A stretch of 64,000 bases of DNA from Janthinobacterium sp. GW456P. GTDB taxonomy: Bacteria; Pseudomonadota; Gammaproteobacteria; Burkholderiales; Burkholderiaceae_D. Below the pieces are notes generated by a model, which had not been told where the DNA came from, ran no database searches, and saw nothing but the letters and a program-made list of their open reading frames with translations. The stretch lies in the NCBI RefSeq assembly GCF_002127655.1, contig NZ_NEHB01000005.1:54639-118638 (forward strand), in the 5' to 3' direction. Positions 34,204 through 59,358 of this stretch are shown in pieces. A program made the translations under genes and the position numbers. The stretch's first letter is position 1, and each line of letters begins with the position of its first letter.

Positions 34204-36261
34204 CTAGCTAGCCTTGCGCCGTTCCGCACGATTTTGTGATATGACGCGCGGCTTGTTGGCGCTCCACAGGCCGGCCGGACGCACGCTGGGCAAGCCGTCG
34301 CGCACGGTCGCGGCGGGTGGCTGGCGCGTGCCTGGCACCTCGTGTTGCCCCAGGCGGAAGCGGCTGACGGCGTGCGTCAGCGCCTCGCCTTCCTGGTGCA
34401 GGCGCTGCGAACCGGCGCGCGCCTCATCGACCAGACCCGCGTTCTGGCGCGTCATGTCGTCGATCTGTGCCAGCGCCTGGTTGATGCGGGCGATCTCGCC
34501 ATTCTGTTCGGCGCCCGCGCTGCTGATGCGTCCGATCACCACGGCCACCTGCTGCACCGCATCGACGACTTGGCGCATGGTGCTGCCGGCTGCATTGACC
34601 AGGTCGCCGCCCGCATCCACGGTGGCGACCGAATCGCCGATCAGGCGCTTGATTTCCAGCGCCGCCTCGTTCGAGCGCTGCGCCAGGCTGCGCACCTCGG
34701 ACGCCACGACGGCAAAGCCGCGCCCTTGCTCGCCCGCGCGCGCCGCTTCCACGGCCGCGTTCAGGGCCAGGATATTCGTCTGGAAGGCGATGCCGTTGAT
34801 GACGCCGATGATGTCGACGATCTTGTGCGAGCTGGCCTTGATCGACGCCATGGTCTCGACCACGGCGCCCACGGTCTGCCCGCCGCGCAGGGCCACGTCG
34901 GCCGCTGTCGCCACCAGCGTGCGCCCCTGTCCTACGTGGGCTTCGTTGCGGCCCACGGTGGCCGTCAGCTCGCGCATCGAGTCCACGGTGGCACCCAGCG
35001 CGTCCGCTTGCGTGGCCGTGTGGCCGGACAGGGCGGCGTTGCCCTGGGCGATGTCGGCGCCGGCCGCCGCGATGACGGCCGCGCCGCCGCGGATATCCTG
35101 CACCAGGGTAGCCAGGCCGTGCGTCATGGCGCCGAAGTCGCGCACCAGGTCGCCGATCTCGTCGTGCGCCTGCGAAGTGATGCGCTGCGACAGGTCGCCC
35201 GCCGCCGCCGCGCCGACGGCCACGCGCAGTTGCGTCACATCGCGCGCGAAGGCGGTATAGAAACCGGCGCACAGGTAGGCGGCGGCCAGCAGCACCAGCA
35301 GCATGGCGGCGAGGATCAGGCCGCGGCGCGCCTCGTCGCGCGCGATGCGCTGCGCCAGCAGGCTGTCGAGCGCGCTGGCCGAGGCGCCGGACAGCGCGTG
35401 CAGGGCATCGATCGCCTGCATGCCGGCCGCATGGAATTGCGCGCCCGACGTCTGGTCGTAGGAATTCGTCACTTCATTCTTCGTGCGTTCGAGGAAGGCC
35501 AGCGCGGCCGGCACGGCTTTCAGGGCCGGCTGCAGGCTGGCGCGCAGTTCCGGCCTGGCGACAATGATTTCATCGAAGCGGGCCGGCAGGCGTTCCAGCT
35601 CGTGGCGCGCGATCAGCGCGTTGGCGTTGACGAGCTGGTCTTCGTTCGCTTCGAACAGGCCAGTGTCGATGTAGGCGGCGCCGCGCCCGCCGATGTCGGA
35701 CAGGCTCTCGGCCAGGTCGGGCAAGGTGGCGGTAAACACGGCGCTCAGGTGGTTGGCGCCCGCGTCCGGGTCCAGGCTCAGGTGCGAACGGTCGGCCACC
35801 AGCTGGGCCAGCTTGCCCGACTGGCGCAGCAGCGCCGTGTGCGCCGCGTAGCTGTCGCGCGCCGCGAGGCCCGCCTGGCGGCCCAGCAGCGCCTGCCACT
35901 GCTTCGTCAGTTCGGCCGCCTGCGGCAAGTCCGCGCCCGCCGGCAAGCGCGCCAGGGCCGACAGCGCGGCCGTGATGCGCGCGTTGAGGGCCGTGTTGTC
36001 CATGCCCGCCTTGCCGCTCAGGCGCAAGTGCTCGAGGCCGCGCCGCTGCTGCAGCAGGCGCGTGCCTTCCTGCAGCTGGCGTACATAGGCCACGCCCCGC
36101 TGCGCGTCCTGCGCCTGGGCCAGCGACTTGCCCAGTTCCGAGATCAGCAGGGTGGTCGCCAGCGCCAGCGGCAGCAGGAAGACCAGGCAGACAAGCATGA
36201 ATTTGGGCAGCAGGCGCAGGCGCTGCATGAGTCGGATGGCGGGGGTGAGGAGCATTTTCAT
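34204..36261 (-). CDS. Methyl-accepting chemotaxis protein
   Basis: The 685-residue receptor has a first membrane helix (about 20-42), a large mostly helical periplasmic region with nitrate/NIT-like character (about 45-335), a second helix (about 335-360), a HAMP domain (about 360-415) and a signalling domain. Its hairpin tip contains [20 protein letters not shown] and [18 protein letters not shown]. The ligand is unknown. The start is the ATG at 36261 ([12 protein letters not shown]). The open frame continues upstream through prfC antisense, but that part is an artefact of GC bias. Confidence 0.9.
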
Positions 36262-36423
36262 CGGGTTTCCAGGGTAGGGTGACAACATTTCTGCAGCGCA
36301 ATGTTGCCTGCGGATTGTGACCCCTTGATGAAGTGGGCGATTTTGCCGTTTTCCAGAGCGAAGCAGTTCACACGGGAGGCCGATCCTTCTGTAAAATCGA
36401 GGGTTTTTTGCGAGGGCCATATT

Positions 36424-38112
36424 ATGGTCACCAATATGGCCAACGAGAACGACATCAACACCCCCGATTCCACCGACAGCGCGGACAACGCCGCAGCGCC
36501 AGCGAGCAGCAAGGCGCCGGCCGTGATCGCGCGCGAAGTGCAGCGCCGCCGCACCTTCGGCATCATTTCCCACCCGGATGCGGGTAAAACCACGCTGACG
36601 GAAAAACTGCTGCTGTTCTCGGGCGCGATCCAGATGGCCGGTACCGTCAAGGCGCGTAAATCGGGCCGCCACGCGACGTCGGACTGGATGGAGATCGAGA
36701 AGCAGCGCGGCATTTCCGTCGCCTCCTCGGTGATGCAGTTCGAATTCCGCGACCACGTCGTCAACCTGCTCGACACCCCGGGCCACCAGGACTTCTCGGA
36801 AGATACCTACCGCGTGCTGACGGCGGTCGACTCGGCGTTGATGGTGATCGATGCGGCCAAAGGCGTGGAAGCGCAGACGATCAAGCTGCTGGCCGTCTGC
36901 CGCATGCGCAATACGCCCATCGTCACCTTCATGAACAAGATGGACCGCGAGACGCGCGATCCGCTGGACCTGCTCGACGAACTCGAATCCGTGCTGAAGA
37001 TCCAGTGCGCGCCCGTCACCTGGCCTATCGGCATGGGCAAGAACTTCCGCGGCGTGTACCACCTGCTGAAGGACGAGATCATGCTGTTCAAGGCCGGTGA
37101 AGAGAAGGCCGATGGCGCCTTCGAAATCATCAAGGGCATCGACAATCCGCGCCTGCAGGAGATGTTCCCGCTGGAGATGGATCAATTGCGCATGGAAGTG
37201 GAACTGGTGCATGGCGCGTCGAACCCGTTCAATCTGGAGGAATTCCTCTCCGGCGTGCAGACGCCCGTGTTCTTCGGTTCGGCCATCAACAACTTCGGCG
37301 TGCGCGAGATTCTTTCCGCGCTGGTCGACTGGGCGCCGGCGCCGCGCCCGCGCGACGCGACCGTGCGTTCCGTCGATCCGACCGAGCAGCCATTCACCGG
37401 CTTCGTCTTCAAGATCCAGGCGAACATGGACCCGGCGCACCGCGACCGCATCGCCTTTTTGCGCGTGTGCTCGGGACGTTTCGAGCGCGGCATGAAGGTC
37501 AAGCACTTGCGCCTGGGGCGCGAGATCAAGGTGTCGAACGTGGTGACCTTCATGGCTTCCTCGCGCGAACAAGTGGAAGAGGCGTACGCGGGCGACATCA
37601 TCGGCCTGCCGAACCACGGCAACATGCAGATCGGCGACAGTTTTTCCGAAGGCGAGATGCTGACCTTTACCGGCATCCCGTACTTCGCGCCGGACTTCTT
37701 CCGCTCCGTGCGCATCCGTAATCCCTTGAAAATCAAGCAGTTGCACAAGGGCTTGCAGCAGCTGGGCGAAGAGGGCGCGGTCCAGGTCTTCAAGCCGGTG
37801 CAGGGTGGCGAACTGGTACTGGGCGCCGTCGGCGTGCTGCAGTTCGAAGTGGTGGCCAGCCGTTTGCTCAACGAATATGGCGTCGACGCCGTGTTCGAAG
37901 GCACCAGCATCAGCAGCGCGCGCTGGGTCAGCTGCGACGACAAGCGCGTCCTGCAGGATTTCGAGAACGCGCTGGGCCACAACGTGGCCTACGATGCGGC
38001 CGGCAACATGGCCTACCTGGCCACGTCGGGCGTCAACTTGCGCTTGACGGAAGAGCGCTGGCCGAAGCTGACATTCCACGCCACGCGCGAGCATTCGGCC
38101 AAGCTGGCCTGA
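36424..38112 (+). CDS. prfC: Peptide chain release factor 3
   Basis: The ~562-residue translational GTPase recycles RF1/RF2 from the ribosome. It has the P-loop [15 protein letters not shown], the G3 motif [16 protein letters not shown], the G4 motif NKMDRE, then domain II and the RF3-type C-terminal domain. About 30 acidic, low-complexity residues precede the family start ([14 protein letters not shown]), making it longer than the usual ~530. The ATG at 36424 follows GAGGG at a good distance; an ATG at 36436 is an alternative. It is divergent from the chemoreceptor. Confidence 0.97.
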
Positions 38113-43831: not shown

Positions 43832-46171
43832 ATGTTCCAATTGTTTGGTTTTGGCGGCGCCCGCTGCCCGCGCTGCGAGCACAAGAACGGCGCCGCCGCC
43901 GGCTATTGCGCGCAATGCGGCTTGTCGCTGGGCGCCCCCGACAGCGACGCGGTGCTGCATGCCAATCAATGGCATCTTGCTGATGGGCAACTGGCCCTGT
44001 TCTTTGGCGTGCGCGAACTGTCCTCGCTGTTCGGCAGCGCGGCGCGCCGCCTGCAGGTGCCCGCCGAGTCGCGCGCCTGGATCGTGCAATCGGACGCTTT
44101 CACCTTGATACCGGCCGGCGACTATGACAGCGCCGCCTTCTTCGCGCGCCTGCCCGCGCTGCTGCCGGCGCGCCCGGCCGAAGTGCTGATCGCGCGCGCC
44201 GACGCCGTCAGCCTGGAATTCGACTTGCCCGGGCTGGCCAGCACGGAGTTGCTGGATGTGGCCGCATCGCTGCGCGTGGACATCGCGCTGGGCCAGCCCG
44301 ACGCGTTTGCGCGCCAGTTCATGCGCGCGCCGGGCGCCGTCACGCGCGCCCACCTGCACGCCTTGCTGCTGCCGTCCGTGCGCCAGATTGCGCTGGAATT
44401 CATCGGCAGCCGCGCGCTGCGCGAGATGGACGCGAATGCCGACTTGCGGCCCGAATTGAACGAGCGCCTGCAATCGGCCCTGACGCAGCGCCTGGCGCCG
44501 TCCGGCCTGGCCGTGGCGCGCGTGGAAACGCTCAGCCTGCGGCACGACAAGCGCGCGGACAAGGGCGATGCCGGCGCCAGCATCGGCACCCTGTGGCTGG
44601 GCGGCTTGCCGGCGCAGGAACTGGAACAGCAGAGCCTCGAACGCATGAAACAGCTCGACCAGCTGTATGACGAGGAAGAGTGGCAGCGCATCCGCCGCGA
44701 GGAACTGGCGGCGCGCCATGCGCACCGGCGCGCCGAACTGCGGCAGGATGCGACGCTGGAAAAGGCGGAACTGAGCCACCAGGAAGCGGAGCGCCTGCAG
44801 GCGCTGCGCGGGCGCCAGATCGACCTGTATGGGCGCATCCTGGAAGCGAAATCGCGGCGCCAGGCGCTCGACCATGGCGCCGCGCTGGCGCTGGGCGAGC
44901 TGGAACAGGAACTGGCGCAGAAGGGCGCGCAGCGCGCCGATGAAGCGGCCAACTGGGAACACTTGCGGGCGCTGGCCGCCATCAAGATGCGCAGCGAGCT
45001 CGAATTGTCGCAGCTGCACGGGCGCGAACAGATCCAGCTGGCGCAGCAGCGCTTTACGCACCAGGTCCACTTGCAGTCGATCGCGCAGCAAGTGGAAAGC
45101 GCGCTGCTGATCGACGACGAGACGGGCCGCCGCACCCAGCTGGCGCGCCTGCGCCAGGCGGAAGCGGATGCGGCCCAGCGCGAGGCGCAGCTGGAGGCGG
45201 AGCAGCACCAGGCGGCCTGGCAGGGCCTGATGCTGGCGAATGCGGCGCGCAAGCGCGAGGCCGAGCGGGTGCAGGAGTGGGAAGACCAGATGCAGCTGGC
45301 ACGCAAGCGCGAACTGCTGCGCGCCGAGGCGCACAAGGATGAAGCGGCCCAGGTGCAGGCGGCGGAAATCGCGGAAAAGGTGGCGGCGCTGCGGCGCGGC
45401 GGCGCGCGCGAAGACGCCATCGCGCAGCAGGAAAAGCTGCTGCGCACCATCGAGGCGGACGGCGTGCACGCACGCCAGCTGCAGCAGCAATCGCAGCTGG
45501 CGCAGCTCGACGCGCTGGCCATCGAGGAACAGCGCCAGCAGCTGCGCCAGCTGGAACAGGAAGCGCAGTGGCAGCGCGACTTGCTGGCCATGGCGCAGCA
45601 GCGCGAAAGCGATTACGCGCGCTGGAAGGGAGAATATGAAGCGTTGCTGGCGCAGCAGGCGCATGCGGCCGAACTGGCGCGCATCGAGATCGACCGCATC
45701 GAGAAAATCGGCTCGCTGAGCGATACGGGCAAGGTGGCCATGGCCGCCGGGCAGAATGCGGCCGCGCTGGCACAAGTGCTCAAGGTGCAGCTGCAGGCGG
45801 GCATGAGCGCCGAGCAGATTCACGCGCTGGCGGCGCTGGCGGCGGCCGAGAACAGCGTCGCGCCGCTCGACGCGCTGCGCATGGCGCAGGACAGTGTGGC
45901 GCAGGAGCGCAGCTACCTGGAAGGCCAGGCGGAACGCGAACGGCGCCAGCAGCTCGACCTGATCAACCTGCAGAACGCGGCGCACGCGCACGGCCTGTCG
46001 GCGCAGGCGCAGCTGGGCGTGGCCGTGGCGCAGGCGCTGCAGCCGGGCGCTGCTTCTGCCTCCGCCGCGCCAGCATCAGCGCCGGCCCGCTGCAAGAACG
46101 GCCACGCGCAGCGCGCGGGTCACCCGGAAGATAAATTCTGCGCCGCCTGCGGTGTCGCCCTGCAGCCTTGA
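43832..46171 (+). CDS. Zinc-ribbon, SPFH-like, long coiled-coil protein
   Basis: The 779-residue protein begins with a zinc ribbon (CPRC at 12-15, CAQC at 31-34). Residues ~60-235 resemble an SPFH/band-7 fold (AASLRVDIALGQPDAFARQF, then a Gly-containing GLAVARVETLSL). Residues ~240-740 are an almost continuous Ala/Gln/Glu/Arg-rich coiled coil. It ends with a second zinc ribbon (CKNGH near 757, CAAC near 772). It has no signal peptide or membrane helix. It looks like an oligomeric scaffold. The kinase gene starts 19 bp downstream, so the two proteins probably act together. No characterised family with this full architecture is known to me. Confidence 0.85.
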   Translation: MFQLFGFGGARCPRCEHKNGAAAGYCAQCGLSLGAPDSDAVLHANQWHLADGQLALFFGVRELSSLFGSAARRLQVPAESRAWIVQSDAFTLIPAGDYDSAAFFARLPALLPARPAEVLIARADAVSLEFDLPGLASTELLDVAASLRVDIALGQPDAFARQFMRAPGAVTRAHLHALLLPSVRQIALEFIGSRALREMDANADLRPELNERLQSALTQRLAPSGLAVARVETLSLRHDKRADKGDAGASIGTLWLGGLPAQELEQQSLERMKQLDQLYDEEEWQRIRREELAARHAHRRAELRQDATLEKAELSHQEAERLQALRGRQIDLYGRILEAKSRRQALDHGAALALGELEQELAQKGAQRADEAANWEHLRALAAIKMRSELELSQLHGREQIQLAQQRFTHQVHLQSIAQQVESALLIDDETGRRTQLARLRQAEADAAQREAQLEAEQHQAAWQGLMLANAARKREAERVQEWEDQMQLARKRELLRAEAHKDEAAQVQAAEIAEKVAALRRGGAREDAIAQQEKLLRTIEADGVHARQLQQQSQLAQLDALAIEEQRQQLRQLEQEAQWQRDLLAMAQQRESDYARWKGEYEALLAQQAHAAELARIEIDRIEKIGSLSDTGKVAMAAGQNAAALAQVLKVQLQAGMSAEQIHALAALAAAENSVAPLDALRMAQDSVAQERSYLEGQAERERRQQLDLINLQNAAHAHGLSAQAQLGVAVAQALQPGAASASAAPASAPARCKNGHAQRAGHPEDKFCAACGVALQP

Positions 46172-46190
46172 TGGAAGCGTTTCACCCCAG

Positions 46191-48512
46191 ATGATGCAAA
46201 AAGCACGAGACAAACTGCGGGAACTGCGCGCCCTCCACGACGACGGGCTGCTCAGCGAGCAGGAATTTGAACGCCGCAAGAACGCCATCCTCGACGCCGA
46301 GTACGCGCCGCCCGGCGCCGCTCCCGTGGCCACGCCGCTGCCCGTACGCCAGGGCACGGAGCTGGGCTTCATGGTGGGCCAGGAAATCGGCCCGCAGAAC
46401 CGCCGCTACCGGCTCGAACGGCTGATCGGCACGGGTGGCATGGGGCAGGTGTGGCAAGCGACCGACCTGGCCACGCACGCGGAGCTGGGCAGCAGCGAAA
46501 TGGTGGCGCTGAAGATCTTGCCGCCGCAGCTGACGCAAAGCGCCACGCATGCCAAGCTGCTGATCGAGGAAGCGACCCAGGCGAGGAAGCTCGCGCATGA
46601 AAACATCGTGCGCGTCTACGAGTGGGCGCAGGATCCGGCCACGGCCAGCTATTTCATCATCATGGAATGCCTCGATGGCGAAGACCTCGAGCACTATCTG
46701 GCGCGCGAGGGCGCGCTGCCCCTGTCCACCGTGCAGCAACTGCTGCAGCCGGTGGCCGAGGCCCTGTCGTATGCGTGGGAAAAGCACAAGCTGGTGCACC
46801 GCGACATCAAGCCGGGCAATGTCTTCCTGACGGCAAAGGGCGACGTCAAGCTGCTCGACTACGGCATCGCTTCGCGCGTGCGCAATGCGGACAGCAGCCT
46901 GGCGCTGGACATGCCGAATGCGGGCACGCACGGCTACCGTGCGCCCGAGGCCGGCGCCAACCAGCGCCAGCCCAGCCCGCGGCTGGACGTGTATGCGGTG
47001 GCCGTGATGATCTATCAGATGCTCGAAGGGCGCATGCCGTTCGACGACGCGCGCAGCGCCAGCCATCTGCCGTCGGCGCCGCAAGCGCTCAACGCGCAGC
47101 AGTGGCAGGTGCTGCAGAACGGGTTTTCGCTGACGCCCGAATTGCGTCCGCAATCGGTGCAAGCCTTGCTGGAAAACCTGGAGCGCGCGGCCGGGCCGTC
47201 GCCCGAGGAACTGGCGGAGCAGGCGCGCCAGCAGCAGGCGCGCGCGGCGCAGCAGGCGCAGCAACAACGGGAGGCGGCGCTGGCGGCCGAACAGGCCCGC
47301 GAGGCGGCGGCCAAAGAGGCACGTGCGCGCCAGGAAGAACTGGACCAGCGCCGCAAGGCCGAGATCCAGGCCGCCGCGCTGGAAAAGCAGCGGCTCGACA
47401 AGCTGCGCCGGGAACAGGAGGCGCAGCGCCATTTCGAAGCGGAAGAGGCGCGCAAGTTGCGCAAGGAAGCGCTGCGCGGCCAGCTGCGCGCGCGCCGCGA
47501 AGCCGATGCCGCCACGGCCTTGCAGGAACACCAGGAATTGCAGCGCAAGGCCATCGTCGCCAAGGCGGAGGCGGCCTACCGCGCGGAGCAGGAACGGGCG
47601 CGCCGCGAAGAGGCCAGCCGTGCAGCGGCCGCAGCGGCCCCCGCGCCGGTATCCGCGCCTGCGCCGGAAGCGGAACACGCGGAACCGGTGCCCAATGCGG
47701 AAGGCGTCTTGCGCGACGATTTTCTCGATGGCTCGGGACAGGGGCCGGAACTGGTACTGATTCCCAGCGGCCGCTTCCAGATGGGCGCGCACGAGACGGA
47801 ACACAAGGCCGCCATCCAGGCCGGCTCGCAGCAGGCATGGCTCGAGCGCGAGATGCCGCAGCACTGGGTCGGCATCGAGCGCCCGTTCGCGCTGGCGCGC
47901 CATCCCGTCAGCGTGGGCGAATGGCGCGCCTTCGTCAAGGCGACCGGATGGACGGGCGGTTCCGAGACGGACTGGGACAATCCCGGCTTCGTGCAGAACG
48001 AGCAGCACCCGGTGGTGGGCGTAAGCTGGAATGACGCGCAGCTGTACCTGGCGTGGATGAGCGAGCGCACGGGCCGCCGCTATCGCCTGCCCAGCGAAGC
48101 GGAATGGGAATACGCCTGCCGCGCCGGCACGCGCACGGCCTTCAACGTGGGCGATACGATCAGCACCGAGCAAGCCAACTACGACGGCCTGTATGTCTAC
48201 AACGGCGGCCCGCGCGGCGTGTACCGGGGCGGCACCACGCCACTCGGCACGTTCGCGCCGAACTCCTGGGGCCTGTTCGACATGCATGGCAATGTGTGGG
48301 AATGGGTGCAGGACGTGGTGCACGACAATTACGAAGGCGCGCCCGTCGATGGCAGCGCATGGGAAGAGGGCAGCGACAGCAGCCGGCGCATCCTGCGCGG
48401 CGGCTCCTGGCTATACCACCCGCGCTACCTGCGCTCGGCCCTGCGCAACGGCTTTTCCACCGTGCTGTCGAACGATATCGTGGGTTTTCGCGTGGCGCGC
48501 ACGCTCGATTGA
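46191..48512 (+). CDS. SHOCT - Ser/Thr kinase - coiled coil - FGE-fold fusion protein
   Basis: The 773-residue protein opens with a SHOCT-like motif (LRALHDDGLLSEQEFERRK, about 9-28). It has a Hanks-type kinase (about 70-340; IGTGGMGQVW, Lys108, HRDIKPGN with Asp205, DYG at 223-225 in place of DFG, YRAPE), an Ala/Glu/Gln/Arg coiled coil (about 345-490) and a C-terminal FGE-sulfatase fold (about 517-773; HPVVGVSWNDA, RLPSEAEWEYACRAG, GNVWEWVQD). The two FGE catalytic cysteines are replaced by Tyr742 and Leu747, so that domain probably binds ligand rather than oxidises cysteine. The ATG at 46191 is preferred; a GTG at 46152 overlaps the previous gene. Confidence 0.9.
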   Translation: MMQKARDKLRELRALHDDGLLSEQEFERRKNAILDAEYAPPGAAPVATPLPVRQGTELGFMVGQEIGPQNRRYRLERLIGTGGMGQVWQATDLATHAELGSSEMVALKILPPQLTQSATHAKLLIEEATQARKLAHENIVRVYEWAQDPATASYFIIMECLDGEDLEHYLAREGALPLSTVQQLLQPVAEALSYAWEKHKLVHRDIKPGNVFLTAKGDVKLLDYGIASRVRNADSSLALDMPNAGTHGYRAPEAGANQRQPSPRLDVYAVAVMIYQMLEGRMPFDDARSASHLPSAPQALNAQQWQVLQNGFSLTPELRPQSVQALLENLERAAGPSPEELAEQARQQQARAAQQAQQQREAALAAEQAREAAAKEARARQEELDQRRKAEIQAAALEKQRLDKLRREQEAQRHFEAEEARKLRKEALRGQLRARREADAATALQEHQELQRKAIVAKAEAAYRAEQERARREEASRAAAAAAPAPVSAPAPEAEHAEPVPNAEGVLRDDFLDGSGQGPELVLIPSGRFQMGAHETEHKAAIQAGSQQAWLEREMPQHWVGIERPFALARHPVSVGEWRAFVKATGWTGGSETDWDNPGFVQNEQHPVVGVSWNDAQLYLAWMSERTGRRYRLPSEAEWEYACRAGTRTAFNVGDTISTEQANYDGLYVYNGGPRGVYRGGTTPLGTFAPNSWGLFDMHGNVWEWVQDVVHDNYEGAPVDGSAWEEGSDSSRRILRGGSWLYHPRYLRSALRNGFSTVLSNDIVGFRVARTLD

Positions 48513-48645: not shown

Positions 48646-49044
48646 ATGACCATCAAAGCCATCCGCGACCAGTCGCAGCCCATGCGCCACATCGTGCACG
48701 TGCGCGATCACATCATTTCCGCCGACGCCTCGGTGGAGGAGGGCGGCGGCGACGCCGGCCCGTCGCCGCACGACCTGTACGATGCCGCCCTGTCGGCCTG
48801 CAAGGCGCTTACCGTCGTCTGGTACGCCAGACACAAGGGCATCCCCCTGGAACATGTGGAAGTGTCGACCGAGCGCGATGCCAGCGAAGAGCGCAAGGGC
48901 GTGTACCGCCTGGCCGCCACCCTGCACCTGACGGGCGACTTGAGCGACGCGCAGCGCCAGGAATTGCTGGCCGTGGCCGGAAAATGCCCGATCCACAAGC
49001 TGATGACAGCCGTCACCACGGAAATCACGACGGTGCTGGCATGA
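48646..49044 (+). CDS. OsmC family thiol peroxidase-like protein
   Basis: The 132-residue protein has the OsmC fold signatures GPSPHDLYDAALSACKALTV and GKCPIHKLM, supplying both conserved catalytic cysteines. It probably reduces organic hydroperoxides. AAGGAACGCC precedes the ATG. Its stop overlaps the pirin start (ATGA), so the two form an operon. Confidence 0.88.
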   Translation: MTIKAIRDQSQPMRHIVHVRDHIISADASVEEGGGDAGPSPHDLYDAALSACKALTVVWYARHKGIPLEHVEVSTERDASEERKGVYRLAATLHLTGDLSDAQRQELLAVAGKCPIHKLMTAVTTEITTVLA

Positions 49045-49928
49045 GCGCGGCCATCCTGAAAAGCCACGAAAAGGACCTGGGCGGCGGCTTCGTCGTGCGG
49101 CGTTTGCTGCCATCAAGCGCGAAACAGGCCGTCGGCCCCTTCATCTTCTTCGACCATTTCGGCCCCATCGACGTGGCGCCCGACGCCAACCACGACGTGC
49201 GCCCGCATCCGCATATCGGCCTGGCCACCGTCACCTATCTGTTCGAGGGCGCGATCGACCACCGCGACAGCATCGGCTCGTACCAGCGCATCGAGCCCGG
49301 CGCCATCAACTGGATGACGGCCGGACGCGGCATCGTGCATTCCGAACGCACGCCGCACGACCTGGCGGGCCAGCCGCACCGCACGCACGGCTTGCAGCTG
49401 TGGGCCGCGCTGCCGAAGGCGCACGAAGAGGATGAGCCGAGCTTCACGCACACGCCGCAGGCCGACATTCCCGTCGTCCCGCTCGACGGCGCCGTCGTCA
49501 AGGTCTTGATCGGCACGGCGTTTGGCCAGACCTCGCCCGTGCGCACCTACATGCAGACGGTGTACCTGGACGTGGCGCTGCAGGCGGGGCGCGCATTGCG
49601 CCTGGAAGGCTTGCCGCCGGAAGCGGCGATCTATCCGATCAGCGGGGAAGTGCTGGTCGATGGCGTGGCGCTCGCGCCGCACACCATGGCCTTGCTGCAA
49701 GCGGGCGACGTGCCCGTGGTGACGGCAGGCGGCGGTCCCGCGCAGTTCGTCGTGATCGGCGGCGAACCGCTGGACGGCCACCGCTACCTGTTCTGGAATT
49801 TCGTCTCGTCGAGCAAGGAGCGCCTGGCGCAGGCGGCCGACGACTGGAGCGCCCAGCGCATGGGACATGTGCCGGGCGAGACGGAATTCATCCCGCTGCC
49901 GAAGGCGCCATTGCGTCCTCCGGCATAA
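49041..49928 (+). CDS. Pirin family protein
   Basis: The 295-residue bicupin has the pirin N-terminal cupin with metal ligands in VRPHPHIGLATVTYLFEG and GRGIVHSE, and the C-terminal cupin (LQAGRALRLEGLPPEAAIYPISGE). Some bacterial pirins act as quercetinases or bind partner enzymes; the role here is unknown. It overlaps the osmC-like gene by four bases, suggesting a shared oxidative-stress or electrophile role. It is convergent with the TonB receptor gene. Confidence 0.9.
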   Translation: MSAAILKSHEKDLGGGFVVRRLLPSSAKQAVGPFIFFDHFGPIDVAPDANHDVRPHPHIGLATVTYLFEGAIDHRDSIGSYQRIEPGAINWMTAGRGIVHSERTPHDLAGQPHRTHGLQLWAALPKAHEEDEPSFTHTPQADIPVVPLDGAVVKVLIGTAFGQTSPVRTYMQTVYLDVALQAGRALRLEGLPPEAAIYPISGEVLVDGVALAPHTMALLQAGDVPVVTAGGGPAQFVVIGGEPLDGHRYLFWNFVSSSKERLAQAADDWSAQRMGHVPGETEFIPLPKAPLRPPA

Positions 49929-55169: not shown

Positions 55170-56804
55170 TCAGGCGGTCAGCGCGCCGCTATCGCATAGC
55201 ACCGCGCCTTCGGTGCGGATGATCCAGCATTCCGGATACGGTTCGCTGGCGAAGCGGTTGTGCCGCGCGAAGCCGCTGAGCTTGTCGAGCGCGGTGGCCG
55301 GGGCCAGCGCGGTTTCCTTGCCGCTGGCCGTGTCCAGGTGCCAGAAACCGCCGTGGCGGTGGAATAGCACGGGAAGGCCGCTGGCCTGCGGCGTGGCAAG
55401 GTGGCTTGCCGGCGTGGGCTGGGTGTCGGGCAGCAGCAGGTAAAAACACTCGGCGCGGGCGCCGTGGTCGATGCGGTGCAGGATCACGCCGTGCGCGAGG
55501 ATGGCCGTGACGCTGAGCACGACGATGCCCTTGATGCTGGCGGACAATTCGATGCGCATGCCCAGGCGCAGGGCGACGGGTTTGTGCTTGCCGGGCCAGA
55601 CGCCGTCGAGCAGCAGGCCGTAGCGCGACACGTCCTCGATTTCAAAGCCTTGCTGGCTGCGCCGGATGATGGCGTGGCGGCCCGACAGGCGGCGCGTCAA
55701 GCCATTATTGTCCTGGCCGTCGGGGCTGAAATGGCTGAGCAGCACATCGGCTTCGGGGTCCACCAGCTCGAAGCGTCCCAGCATGCATTCTTCCAGCGCG
55801 AACAGGCGGACCTGGCGCTGTTCGCCCGCTTCCGGCGCCGCATTGACGAGGCAGGCAGCCTGGCTCGGGTGCGGATGGCAGTGGCTGGCGGCGGGCAGGT
55901 CGACTTCGATCAACTCCTCGTCCCAGGCAATCGTGGCAAAGCCCATGTCGATCTTGCCTTGCGGGGCCGACAAATCGACGTGGGCGATGCCGGCATTGCG
56001 CGCCGTGACGTCGAGGTTGCAACCGTCGCCGCCCGTCACGCGGGCAATCGAGGCGTCGTCGGCCATCACGCGCACGTTCTTGTGCGTGCTGAGGAAGATC
56101 TGGTGGATTTCCGTCAGGGTGGCGTCGCGGCGCGGCACGAGGATGACAAACGTGCACACCCATTTCTGCGCCACGGCGCCATCGACATGGCTGTGCACTT
56201 CCACTTCGATCTGGTATTGCCCATGTTCCTTGTTACGCGAGGAAAACTCGACAAACACGGGGCGCCAGTCGCCACGCGTGGTGCGCACGAAATCATGCTG
56301 GACGGCGCCGCGCGGGATCAGGTCCGAGCGCAGTCGCAAGGTCAGCTGCGGCGCGCAGCTGGCGCTCATGCCGCGCAATTCCATTTTCAGCGTTTGCCGT
56401 CCGCCTGCCGCACGGGGATCGAAGCCGCTGATGTGCAGGTGGGCATGTATCGGCTGGTAAGCTGGCGCAGTGGCCGGCTGTGCGGCGGGCACTGGGGTAA
56501 ATGTTGGCAGGCTGGCGGGGGGCGAGGCTGGCGCGGGGCTGGTCACCGCTTGAGCCGCATCGCGTATCACCGCATCGCGCATCGCGACATCATGCGCACG
56601 GGCGTGCGGAAGCGCCGTTGCCGATGGCTCGGAACGGGCGCTGCGCAGTGCGGTCAACAGGTCGTAGCTGCTGGGGGTAGTCGTCGCTTGCGGGTGGTTG
56701 CCCGCGCAGACTGTTTCCCCAGGCAAGACCCAGAACGTACAGTGCGGGTGCTCCGGGTTGCTGCATTTTTTCATGACATTCTGACTCGAATCGAGCGGGG
56801 ACAT
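55170..56804 (-). CDS. Zinc-ribbon FHA-domain protein
   Basis: The ~544-residue cytoplasmic protein has an N-terminal Cys/His cluster (KKCSNPEHPHC and VCAGNH, about 12-36), a Pro/Ala-rich linker (about 75-130), a beta-rich middle domain (about 135-320) and an FHA domain (about 340-425). The FHA domain has GRFELV, the phosphothreonine-binding SGRH and RYGLLLDG. The C-terminal ~110 residues are unassigned. FHA domains bind phosphothreonine, so the kinase at 46.2 kb is a candidate partner. The ATG at 56804 follows AGAGGG. A longer reading upstream lacks support. Confidence 0.82.
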   Translation of the reverse strand: MSPLDSSQNVMKKCSNPEHPHCTFWVLPGETVCAGNHPQATTTPSSYDLLTALRSARSEPSATALPHARAHDVAMRDAVIRDAAQAVTSPAPASPPASLPTFTPVPAAQPATAPAYQPIHAHLHISGFDPRAAGGRQTLKMELRGMSASCAPQLTLRLRSDLIPRGAVQHDFVRTTRGDWRPVFVEFSSRNKEHGQYQIEVEVHSHVDGAVAQKWVCTFVILVPRRDATLTEIHQIFLSTHKNVRVMADDASIARVTGGDGCNLDVTARNAGIAHVDLSAPQGKIDMGFATIAWDEELIEVDLPAASHCHPHPSQAACLVNAAPEAGEQRQVRLFALEECMLGRFELVDPEADVLLSHFSPDGQDNNGLTRRLSGRHAIIRRSQQGFEIEDVSRYGLLLDGVWPGKHKPVALRLGMRIELSASIKGIVVLSVTAILAHGVILHRIDHGARAECFYLLLPDTQPTPASHLATPQASGLPVLFHRHGGFWHLDTASGKETALAPATALDKLSGFARHNRFASEPYPECWIIRTEGAVLCDSGALTA

Positions 56805-58001: not shown

Positions 58002-58427
58002 ATGACCATGCCCGCCCAACGCCCGCTCCAGCTTGCCATTGCCTATGGCGCCGCCTTGTGTGCATTCCTCGCCATCGACGCCCTGTGGCTGGCGGTGCTG
58101 ATGAAACCCGTGTATGCCGCGGCGCTGGGACCGCTATTGGCGGACACGCCCCGCTGGGCGCCGGCCGTGTTGTTTTACCTGCTGTACGTGGCGGGGCTGG
58201 TGGTGTTTGCCGTCCTGCCCGGCCTGCGGGCGCGCCGCGGACGCACGGCGGCCGCGCTGGGCGCTCTGCTGGGGCTGCTTGCCTACGGCACCTATGATTT
58301 GAGCAACTATGCGACCTTGCGCGGCTGGCCGCTGGCCTTGACGGCGATCGACATGGCGTGGGGCACCGTGCTGTCGGCCGTGTCGGCCACGGCCGGCTAC
58401 CTGGCCGCTAGCCGCCTGGGACGGTGA
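58002..58427 (+). CDS. DUF2177 family membrane protein
   Basis: The 141-residue protein has four predicted membrane helices and the DUF2177 features FLAIDALWLAVLMKPVYAA, AYGTYDLSNYATLRGWP and IDMAWGTVLSA. Function is not known. Its last 20 bases overlap the end of the convergent phosphatase gene. An ATG two codons downstream (58008) is an equally good start. Confidence 0.82.
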   Translation: MTMPAQRPLQLAIAYGAALCAFLAIDALWLAVLMKPVYAAALGPLLADTPRWAPAVLFYLLYVAGLVVFAVLPGLRARRGRTAAALGALLGLLAYGTYDLSNYATLRGWPLALTAIDMAWGTVLSAVSATAGYLAASRLGR

Positions 58428-59358
58428 ATGCCGCCTCGAAGCGCAGCGCCAGCAAGGTAATGTTGTCGCTATGCAAGCCTTTTGGCGGATGCAAGAGAAA
58501 GTCGTCGAACAGGGCGCTCACGGCCTGCGCCGCGGTTTTGCCGGCGCACAAGGCGGGCCAGCGGGCCGTGAGGGCCAGCGGATCCTCGCAGGCCCAGAAA
58601 CCGTCGCTGGCCAGCAGATAGTGGGCGCCGGGACGTACGCGCAGCACGCGGCGGTCGCCCAGGTGTGCCAGGAAGGGCGGCAAGGTGGCCGCATCAAGGC
58701 CGCGCAGCGGTTTGTCGAGCTGCAAGCTGTCGCTGATGGCGTTGCCTAAAATGAAGGCCTGCGAGATTTGCGGATGGTGTTCGCCGTGCACGGCGGCGCG
58801 CCAGCGCGTCTCGTCGAGCGCGCCGCGCATGGCGTACACGGTGGCCGGCACGTGGTCGACGGTGAGGATGCTGGCAACCCCGTCGGCAATTTCATACAGG
58901 CGCGAATCGCCCACGTGATACAGCAGCGGGGCTTCGCCGGGCGGCACTTCCAGCAAGGTCAGGGTGGTGCCGGGCGGACGCGCCTGGGCGGGCGCGGTTC
59001 GGGCGAAGGTATCCTGCAAGCGCGTGTGCAACTCGTCGAGTTCGGCTGCCAGGCTGGCCGTGTCGAGGCAGGCGGGTATGGTCAGCAAGCCTTGCACGGC
59101 CGCTTCCGCCGCTTCGCGCCCATGGCCGTGGCCGCCCATGCCGTCGAGTACGGCAGCGCGCACGTGGCCGCGCGGCCAGCCCGGCACCTGGCAGTGGAAC
59201 GGCGCTTGCCGCGACAGGCAGACGGCGTGGCCGCTGGCATCGATCAGCAGGAAGTTGTCCTGGTTTTCGCGCCGGGGCAGGGGGCCGGCGCCCACGCTGG
59301 TGCCGGCGGCGGCATCGAGCCAGGGGCCGAAGTCGAGCGCGTCTTTGATTAAATGCAT
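58408..59358 (-). CDS. PP2C-type Ser/Thr protein phosphatase
   Basis: The ~316-residue phosphatase has the PPM metal-binding motifs in order: RENQDNFLL, VLDGMGGHGHGREAA, YHVGDSRLYE, LLASDGFW and SDNITLLALR. All acidic metal ligands are present. It would reverse Hanks-kinase phosphorylation, and the nearest kinase is the STK-FGE protein ~10 kb away. The start is uncertain: the ATG at 59358 or a GTG at 59403, neither with a clear ribosome site. It is downstream of the glycine-zipper gene but separated by a terminator. Confidence 0.88.
   Translation of the reverse strand: MHLIKDALDFGPWLDAAAGTSVGAGPLPRRENQDNFLLIDASGHAVCLSRQAPFHCQVPGWPRGHVRAAVLDGMGGHGHGREAAEAAVQGLLTIPACLDTASLAAELDELHTRLQDTFARTAPAQARPPGTTLTLLEVPPGEAPLLYHVGDSRLYEIADGVASILTVDHVPATVYAMRGALDETRWRAAVHGEHHPQISQAFILGNAISDSLQLDKPLRGLDAATLPPFLAHLGDRRVLRVRPGAHYLLASDGFWACEDPLALTARWPALCAGKTAAQAVSALFDDFLLHPPKGLHSDNITLLALRFEAAFTVPGG

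What the first reader, a model, noticed from the sequence alone, without database searches (positions are those of the whole stretch)
43832..48512. Two-gene zinc-ribbon/SPFH-like scaffold plus STK-FGE kinase unit
Seen directly: two long co-oriented genes 19 bp apart. The first has zinc ribbons at both ends, an SPFH-like segment and ~500 residues of coiled coil. The second has a SHOCT-like motif, a complete Hanks-type kinase, a coiled coil of the same Ala/Glu/Gln/Arg composition, and an FGE-sulfatase fold. STK-FGE fusions are known (for example chlamydial Pkn1), and SPFH proteins form membrane-associated rings. The pairing as a two-gene unit is not one I recognise as a described system. Inference: the coiled coils co-assemble and the kinase senses through its FGE-fold domain, perhaps in stress or phage response.
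Basis: partly seen in the sequence, partly recalled or inferred. Interest (0 to 1): 0.8.

Follow-up and report, generated by a model that had tools for sequence, protein, structure and literature searches.

The report
Ring-scaffolded kinase module tied to cell-wall genes
A soil and water bacterium keeps a set of four probable signalling proteins (a ring-type scaffold, a protein kinase, a phosphate reader and a phosphatase) that in its relatives sits among cell-wall building genes, much like a well-known wall-control locus of Actinobacteria but with a different scaffold.

Summary
Gene A (43832-46171) has zinc ribbons at both ends, an SPFH domain and a long coiled coil; gene B (46191-48512) is SHOCT, Hanks kinase, coiled coil and FGE-like domain. 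SPFH is borne out by family profile (37 of 41 members at E<=1) and model. B follows A in 86 of 86 loci found by tblastn. But the unit is larger than two genes. The window also carries gene C (FHA, 55170-56774 -) and gene D (PP2C, 58408-59358 -). Of 245 genomes of the family, 85 have A or C and 83 have both. In most named Massilia, Duganella, Pseudoduganella and Rugamonas loci A-B end a gene run with a divergent PBP transpeptidase; in eight unnamed relatives C lies near a second run with a RodA/FtsW-like protein and a second kinase. That parts list resembles the actinobacterial pknA-pknB wall cluster. The window's lineage appears to have lost the wall half and kept the signalling core. Best reading: an SPFH-scaffolded kinase/FHA/PP2C envelope-signalling module; every functional step is inferred. 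A phage role is not supported. Nine paper searches listed no description.

The parts
43832..46171 (+). Gene A: zinc ribbon - SPFH - long coiled coil - zinc ribbon, 779 aa; no membrane helix by hydropathy
46191..48512 (+). Gene B: SHOCT - Hanks Ser/Thr kinase - coiled coil - FGE-like domain, 773 aa; no membrane helix by hydropathy
55170..56774 (-). Gene C: N-terminal Cys/His motif that looks like a zinc ribbon by eye (no Pfam hit), beta-rich middle, FHA domain (PF00498 1.7e-5, over cut-off), 534 aa
58408..59358 (-). Gene D: PP2C-type phosphatase (PF13672 1.8e-5, over cut-off), 316 aa
59508..59954 (-). Relative (58% identity, best segment) of the glycine-zipper protein at the far edge of the second gene run in relatives; between it and D relatives carry kinase 2, SEDS, F25 and SH3 genes, here 149 bp remain. 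An edge marker, not shown to belong to the module

Best explanation
A, B, C and D form one Ser/Thr phospho-signalling module. Shown: domains, linkage, co-occurrence. Inferred: A forms a soluble or peripherally membrane-attached SPFH ring or cap with a coiled-coil stalk; B docks on it and is activated by clustering; B phosphorylates A, C or envelope substrates on Thr; C reads the phospho-Thr through its FHA domain; D reverses it. In relatives the output is a dedicated divergent SEDS-PBP wall synthase encoded in the same two gene runs. In the window's Janthinobacterium lineage that synthase is gone and the signalling core is kept, presumably acting on the standard envelope machinery.
For: A in 84 and full-length C (E<1e-50) in 84 of 245 family genomes, 83 shared. 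In 5 of 8 loci of one genus C-A-B lie side by side on one strand. Specific D (E<1e-100) in 65 of 245, all among A genomes. F13 of the first run in 54 of 245, all among A genomes. The SEDS N-terminus of the second run is in 25 of 155 genomes, all F13-positive: 25 of 26 F13-positive and 0 of 13 F13-negative A genomes, with sample membership assumed from handle order. PBP, SEDS and kinase-2 domains. The A tree needs 3 changes of the wall-half label over 44 rows. Kinase motifs mostly kept; nearest solved kinases are PknA 4.6e-31 and PknB.
Against: No interaction, phosphorylation or phenotype was measured. C and D are 7-10 kb from A-B and on the other strand in the window, and in some relatives far away or on another contig (for example G011, G451, G587). 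Specific D is missing from 19 of 84 A genomes, and in several relatives other genes lie between D and the SH3 gene. Co-occurrence is confined to 7 of 44 genera of one family, so shared descent alone could give it. The usual Asn-Gly of FHA domains (recalled) is Tyr-Gly here, though Arg334, Ser364 and His367 are invariant in 26 of 26 rows. In G002 the reading frame of B ends after 451 aa. A and F12 show no profile kinship.
Confidence: 0.6

Rival explanations
1. A and B are a self-contained two-gene stress or phage-defence unit; C and D are neighbours by chance.
For: B adjoins A in 86 of 86 loci while C and D move. B's kinase domain scores well against defence kinase models such as mad6 and PD-T4-6.
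Against: Those scores cover mainly the kinase domain and probably reflect kinase kinship in general (inference); A has no match in that library. A is in 37 of 37 near-complete genus genomes and had no plasmid match. C is present in 83 of 84 A genomes.
Confidence: 0.08
2. The module mainly serves a process other than wall synthesis (for example oxidative stress, given the OsmC and pirin neighbours), and the wall genes in relatives were recruited later.
For: OsmC and pirin genes follow B in the window; the clusters to which they seem to belong (named from the sequence by eye) occur in 20 and 24 of the 49 stretches clustered. One genus has the C-A-B core without the wall genes nearby.
Against: In that genus I saw no OsmC or pirin gene in the ORF lists next to the core (by eye, no search). 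F13 and the SEDS gene, in different gene runs, are present or absent together but for G408.
Confidence: 0.22
3. A is a cage- or filament-forming structural protein (vault- or cytoskeleton-like) and the kinase only regulates its assembly.
For: SPFH plus long coiled coil without a membrane helix; major vault protein is among the Foldseek matches.
Against: Vault matches start at 5.8e-6 against 8.8e-9 for prohibitin; no oligomer was modelled.
Confidence: 0.1

Closest known systems
Actinobacterial pknA-pknB cluster (RodA, PbpA, two kinases, two FHA proteins, phosphatase PstP)
   Same: The relatives' two gene runs together encode the same kinds of parts: SEDS protein, class B PBP, two Hanks kinases, FHA protein and mostly a PP2C. 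Kinase B is nearest to PknA/PknB among solved structures. The actinobacterial content: passages of PMC3989709; PstP in a wall-synthesis locus: start of the abstract of PMC6554272 in a search listing.
   Different: No PASTA hit; kinase B carries SHOCT and FGE and no membrane helix; an SPFH-ribbon scaffold and the unnamed families F12, F13, F17, F21, F25 are added; seen only in the window's family in the searches made; the window itself lacks the wall genes.
Kinase-FGE (NirV/DUF323) fusions such as chlamydial kinases
   Same: Kinase followed by an FGE-fold domain, described in 2005 (one passage of PMC1262709).
   Different: Here with SHOCT and coiled coil and next to an SPFH scaffold; FGE part nearest to PvdO among solved structures (7.5e-46).
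SPFH ring proteins (prohibitin, stomatin, flotillin, HflK/C, QmcA)
   Same: SPFH fold and following helix.
   Different: No membrane helix by hydropathy; zinc ribbons at both ends; kinase neighbour.
SPFH-zinc-ribbon proteins of the Bacillus YdjI type (recalled)
   Same: SPFH with zinc ribbon (recalled).
   Different: Long coiled coil between the ribbons and kinase/FHA/PP2C neighbours; not compared by a tool here.

Membership tests
SPFH / Band 7 superfamily (gene A) | SPFH fold followed by helix | tested here: met
   PF01145 in 37 of 41 members at E<=1, best 1.2e-9; model and Foldseek. The window's own copy alone is below cut-off (E 0.013).
SPFH / Band 7 superfamily (gene A) | Membrane attachment and ring oligomer | tested here: inconclusive
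   No strongly hydrophobic 19-residue stretch (maximum 1.15); oligomer not modelled.
Active Hanks-type kinase (gene B) | Gly loop, Lys, HRD, DFG and APE motifs | tested here: met
   Strict patterns: Gly loop 63, Lys 81, HRD 78, D[FY]G 82, APE 81 of 83 B proteins, near-copies and cut rows included; the window has all five, with DYG for DFG. Activity not tested.
Formylglycine-generating enzyme | Catalytic cysteine pair of human FGE (recalled) | tested here: not met
   The MCHRSYC segment of human FGE aligns with LYHPRY; Cys pattern in 0 of 83 B proteins, of which 38 reach the FGE end.
FHA phospho-Thr reader (gene C) | FHA fold with Arg and Ser of the phosphate pocket (roles recalled) | tested here: met
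   PF00498 over cut-off in the window's C; FHA proteins lead the Foldseek list, E from 1.6e-4; R334, S364, H367 invariant in 26 of 26. Binding not tested; the usual Asn is replaced.
PP2C phosphatase (gene D) | PP2C fold and metal-binding Asp motifs (recalled) | tested here: met
   PF13672 over cut-off; profile hits PppA 5.3e-10, MspP, PstP; DGMGG, GDSR, DG, DN invariant in 9 of 9.
Actinobacterial pknB-type wall locus (the window) | Linked RodA/FtsW and PBP genes | tested here: not met
   No kin of F11, F12, F13, F17, F21, F24 or F25 in the window at E below 0.2, none of kinase 2 or F38 above 50 bits; genome-wide absence tested for F13, F17 and the F38 N-terminus only.
Actinobacterial pknB-type wall locus (the relatives) | SEDS, PBP, two kinases and FHA protein encoded together | tested here: met
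   SEDS, kinase 2 and C in eight of eight genomes read further out; F11 (PBP) kin in 18 of the loci held. In some genomes the two runs are far apart.
Actinobacterial pknB-type wall locus (the relatives) | PASTA domains on the kinase | tested here: not met
   No PASTA hit in B at E<=1 or in the four kinase-2 proteins scanned at E<=0.05.

The most novel reading that the evidence does not exclude
A previously undescribed, SPFH-ring-based Ser/Thr kinase signalosome that controls a dedicated second SEDS-PBP wall synthase in Oxalobacteraceae, assembled independently of the actinobacterial pknB locus, with the Janthinobacterium lineage keeping the signalling core after losing the synthase.
Probability: 0.4. 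Interest if true: 0.8.

Novelty: new variant of a known kind. Interest (0 to 1): 0.62.

Why it matters
Linking of Hanks kinases, a phosphatase and FHA readers to a RodA-PBP pair is known from Actinobacteria. A Gram-negative counterpart organised around an SPFH scaffold would show the same logic with other parts, gives five unnamed protein families (F12, F13, F17, F21, F25) a context, and offers natural comparisons between lineages with and without the wall genes for testing what the kinase core does on its own.

Tried and rejected
SPFH by single-sequence search of A: missed; only the family shows it. Kinship of A with F12: none by profile comparison. F13 and F17 against solved structures: no convincing match. 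SEDS and PBP parts by single-sequence search against solved structures: none at 0.001, so they are divergent; against NCBIfam they fall far below the cut-offs, F38 nearly equal to RodA (2.5e-15) and FtsW (1e-14), F11 nearest PBP2 (2.2e-13). Wider spread: class samples gave only the window genome with P0001 (1 of 369) and, with the profile, one more genome with ribbon-only hits (2 of 369); both rest on a loose first look and may miss distant kin. Most distant A-like hit (G408, L073): SPFH protein (Band_7 8.6e-7) with kin of F12, F13, F17, F21 upstream, but the downstream ORF has no Pfam match and no B was seen. Promoter/terminator scan of the pair: nothing above chance. Rows dropped: in the C count only matches with E below 1e-50 (84 of the 88 genomes with a match); in the D count only E below 1e-100 (65 of 211), since the rest are weak, short FHA-only or PP2C-only matches. 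In one search three loci (L074, L082, L084) were scored 'no B' by the script; one search shows B there, so I count 86 of 86. L073, not found by tblastn, is outside that count. The 860-bp gap for L079 is a BLAST-fragment artefact. The tree left out most near-copies and L046 (contig end); L049 and L069 in it have identical A and may be one genome. My ORF picker miscalled low-GC loci (L074, L076, L078, L083) and some window frames (for example 34342-38112 +, where the - strand encodes a chemotaxis receptor); tblastn-anchored coordinates replaced them.

Full report
What is there. Gene A (43832-46171 +, 779 aa) and gene B (46191-48512 +, 773 aa) are 19 bp apart. B has SHOCT, Pkinase and FGE-sulfatase domains over their Pfam cut-offs. 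On the single sequence of A, Pfam gives only weak ribbon hits. The SPFH claim was therefore tested on the family: of 41 N-terminal regions (window included), at E<=1, 37 match Band_7 (PF01145, best 1.2e-9), 25 Band_7_1 and 34 a zinc ribbon; the window's own copy has Band_7 at 0.013, below cut-off. The AlphaFold2 model of residues 1-330 has mean pLDDT 85.7, and the 50 Foldseek PDB rows shown are SPFH proteins or the vault protein. Neither A nor B has a hydrophobic stretch fit for a membrane helix.

Conservation of the pair. Named relatives place the window in or next to Janthinobacterium. Gene A is in 37 of 40 genus genomes, 37 of 37 near-complete ones, and in 84 of 245 genomes of the family, in 7 of 44 genera. 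Of 86 loci with a tblastn match to A, B follows on the same strand in 83 by script and in the other three. Many of these loci hold only about 1.5 kb after A (L033 only 175 bases), named and unnamed loci may be the same genome, and L006 is the window itself. The most distant A-like protein (L073) was not found by tblastn and has no recognisable B.

B's domains. The kinase motifs are kept in most of 83 B proteins and the nearest solved kinases are mycobacterial PknA and PknB. The FGE part is nearest to PvdO; the cysteine segment of human FGE is not kept (pattern in 0 of 83 B proteins, 38 of which reach the FGE end), so formylglycine chemistry is unlikely and a binding role more likely (inference). 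In eight loci of one genus (L074-L078, L082-L084) B is 464-495 aa long, P2 matches there stop before the FGE part and the one scanned has no FGE hit. In five tails seen a short FGE-like stretch remains (L074, L076, L077, L078, L083); in L075 it does not; two tails were not printed. The FGE part is thus not needed for the core.

The larger unit. Neighbours of relatives showed further genes. Gene C (window 55170-56774 -) has an N-terminal Cys/His motif (missing in L074, L075, L076, L083) and an FHA domain over cut-off; FHA proteins lead the Foldseek list for its model (mean pLDDT 74, pTM 0.46, FHA part mostly above 90). Gene D (58408-59358 -) is a PP2C phosphatase. In five of the eight loci just named, C, A and B are neighbours on one strand; in one a gene lies between, in two C is elsewhere. 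C in full length is in 84 of 245 genomes, 83 of them with A; A alone in G622 (81% complete), C alone in G450 (68% complete). Specific D is in 65, all with A.

The wall-synthesis half in relatives. In seven of nine named loci outside Janthinobacterium (L045, L047, L048, L050-L053) a co-oriented run F11-F13-F21-F12-F17-A-B is seen; L046 runs off its contig and L049 lacks it. F11 kin occur in 18 and F13 kin in 19 of the loci held then. G002, near the base of the Janthinobacterium branch in the A tree, has F11, F13, F12, F17, A and B in a row too; F17 is in 4 of 40 genus genomes (G002, G003, G011, G031). F11 has a PBP transpeptidase domain (5e-15 to 1e-12) with SxN and KTG motifs in 9 of 9 and an SxFK motif seen in 7 of 9. 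In eight of eight genomes read further out (G626, G475, G539, G483, G509, G612, G547, G002) a second run holds kinase 2, F38, F25 and an SH3 protein; a glycine-zipper protein lies at its edge (seven by tblastn, G483 by eye), and C lies in the same stretch, with D in six (not G509, G612). Other genes lie between D and the SH3 gene in several. Kinase 2 has Pkinase at 6e-27 to 1e-30 in four scanned, F38 a FtsW/RodA domain at 5e-16 and 1e-18 in two scanned. F13 is in 54 of 245 genomes, all with A, and not found in the window genome; the F38 N-terminus is in 25 of 155, that is in 25 of 26 F13-positive and 0 of 13 F13-negative A genomes, if the sample is as assumed; the exception is G408. On a tree of 44 A proteins the label 'wall half present' needs 3 changes, with Janthinobacterium and one Duganella lineage nested among wall-bearing rows, which points to at least two losses (midpoint root). 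In the window, D and the glycine-zipper gene stand 149 bp apart, where relatives carry kinase 2, F38, F25 and the SH3 gene.

How it probably works. Shown: parts, linkage, co-inheritance, and joint presence or absence of the two wall-gene blocks. Inferred: A is a ring- or cap-forming scaffold that clusters kinase B; phosphorylation is read by the FHA protein C and erased by D; in relatives the target is the SEDS-PBP pair, in the window lineage the general envelope machinery. None of these steps was measured.

Known or new. Passages of PMC3989709 describe PknA and PknB in an operon with RodA and PbpA and two FHA proteins in the same cluster; the abstract start of PMC6554272 in a search listing places PstP in a wall-synthesis locus. 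The relatives' parts list is the same in kind, but no PASTA was found, an SPFH-ribbon scaffold is added and several unnamed families take part. Kinase-FGE fusions were reported in 2005 (one passage of PMC1262709); passages of PMC7159879, among them one on kinase-PP2C-vWA neighbourhoods, did not describe this set. Nine paper searches listed no paper whose title or abstract start describes this combination; the listed ESCRT paper was not opened, and subscription journals are mostly not held. I file it as a new variant of a known kind. The window itself fails the membership test for the wall locus, since the wall genes are missing.

Limits. Co-occurrence is within one family and could reflect descent. 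First-look limits may hide distant kin. Coiled-coil co-assembly was not tested.

Noticed in passing
L074, L076, L077, L078, L083 (end of gene B): Gene B lacks the FGE domain but keeps a short FGE-like stretch (SWEDAQRYLAAL-type), as if the domain had been eroded down to one helix.
   Followed up: partly
L047:3502-4860, L047:5511-6737, L047:6737-7906, L111:12328-14001: F13, F12, F17 and F25: conserved proteins without a Pfam or NCBIfam match over cut-off; F13 begins with a nearly invariant MRLPGTRYQEHGWE block.
   Followed up: partly
L114:13616-15991 (F38): The RodA/FtsW-like domain is preceded by about 480 residues with a stretch that looks FHA-like by eye.
   Followed up: no
window 48646-49928: OsmC-like and pirin genes follow the pair here, and what look like kin of them lie nearby in many relatives.
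   Followed up: partly
L073:8118-9773: In the most distant A-like locus the gene in B's place is a 552-aa protein with no Pfam match.
   Followed up: no
L060:3830-5182 (G002): The reading frame of gene B ends after 451 aa although relatives continue into the FGE domain; B may be broken there.
   Followed up: no
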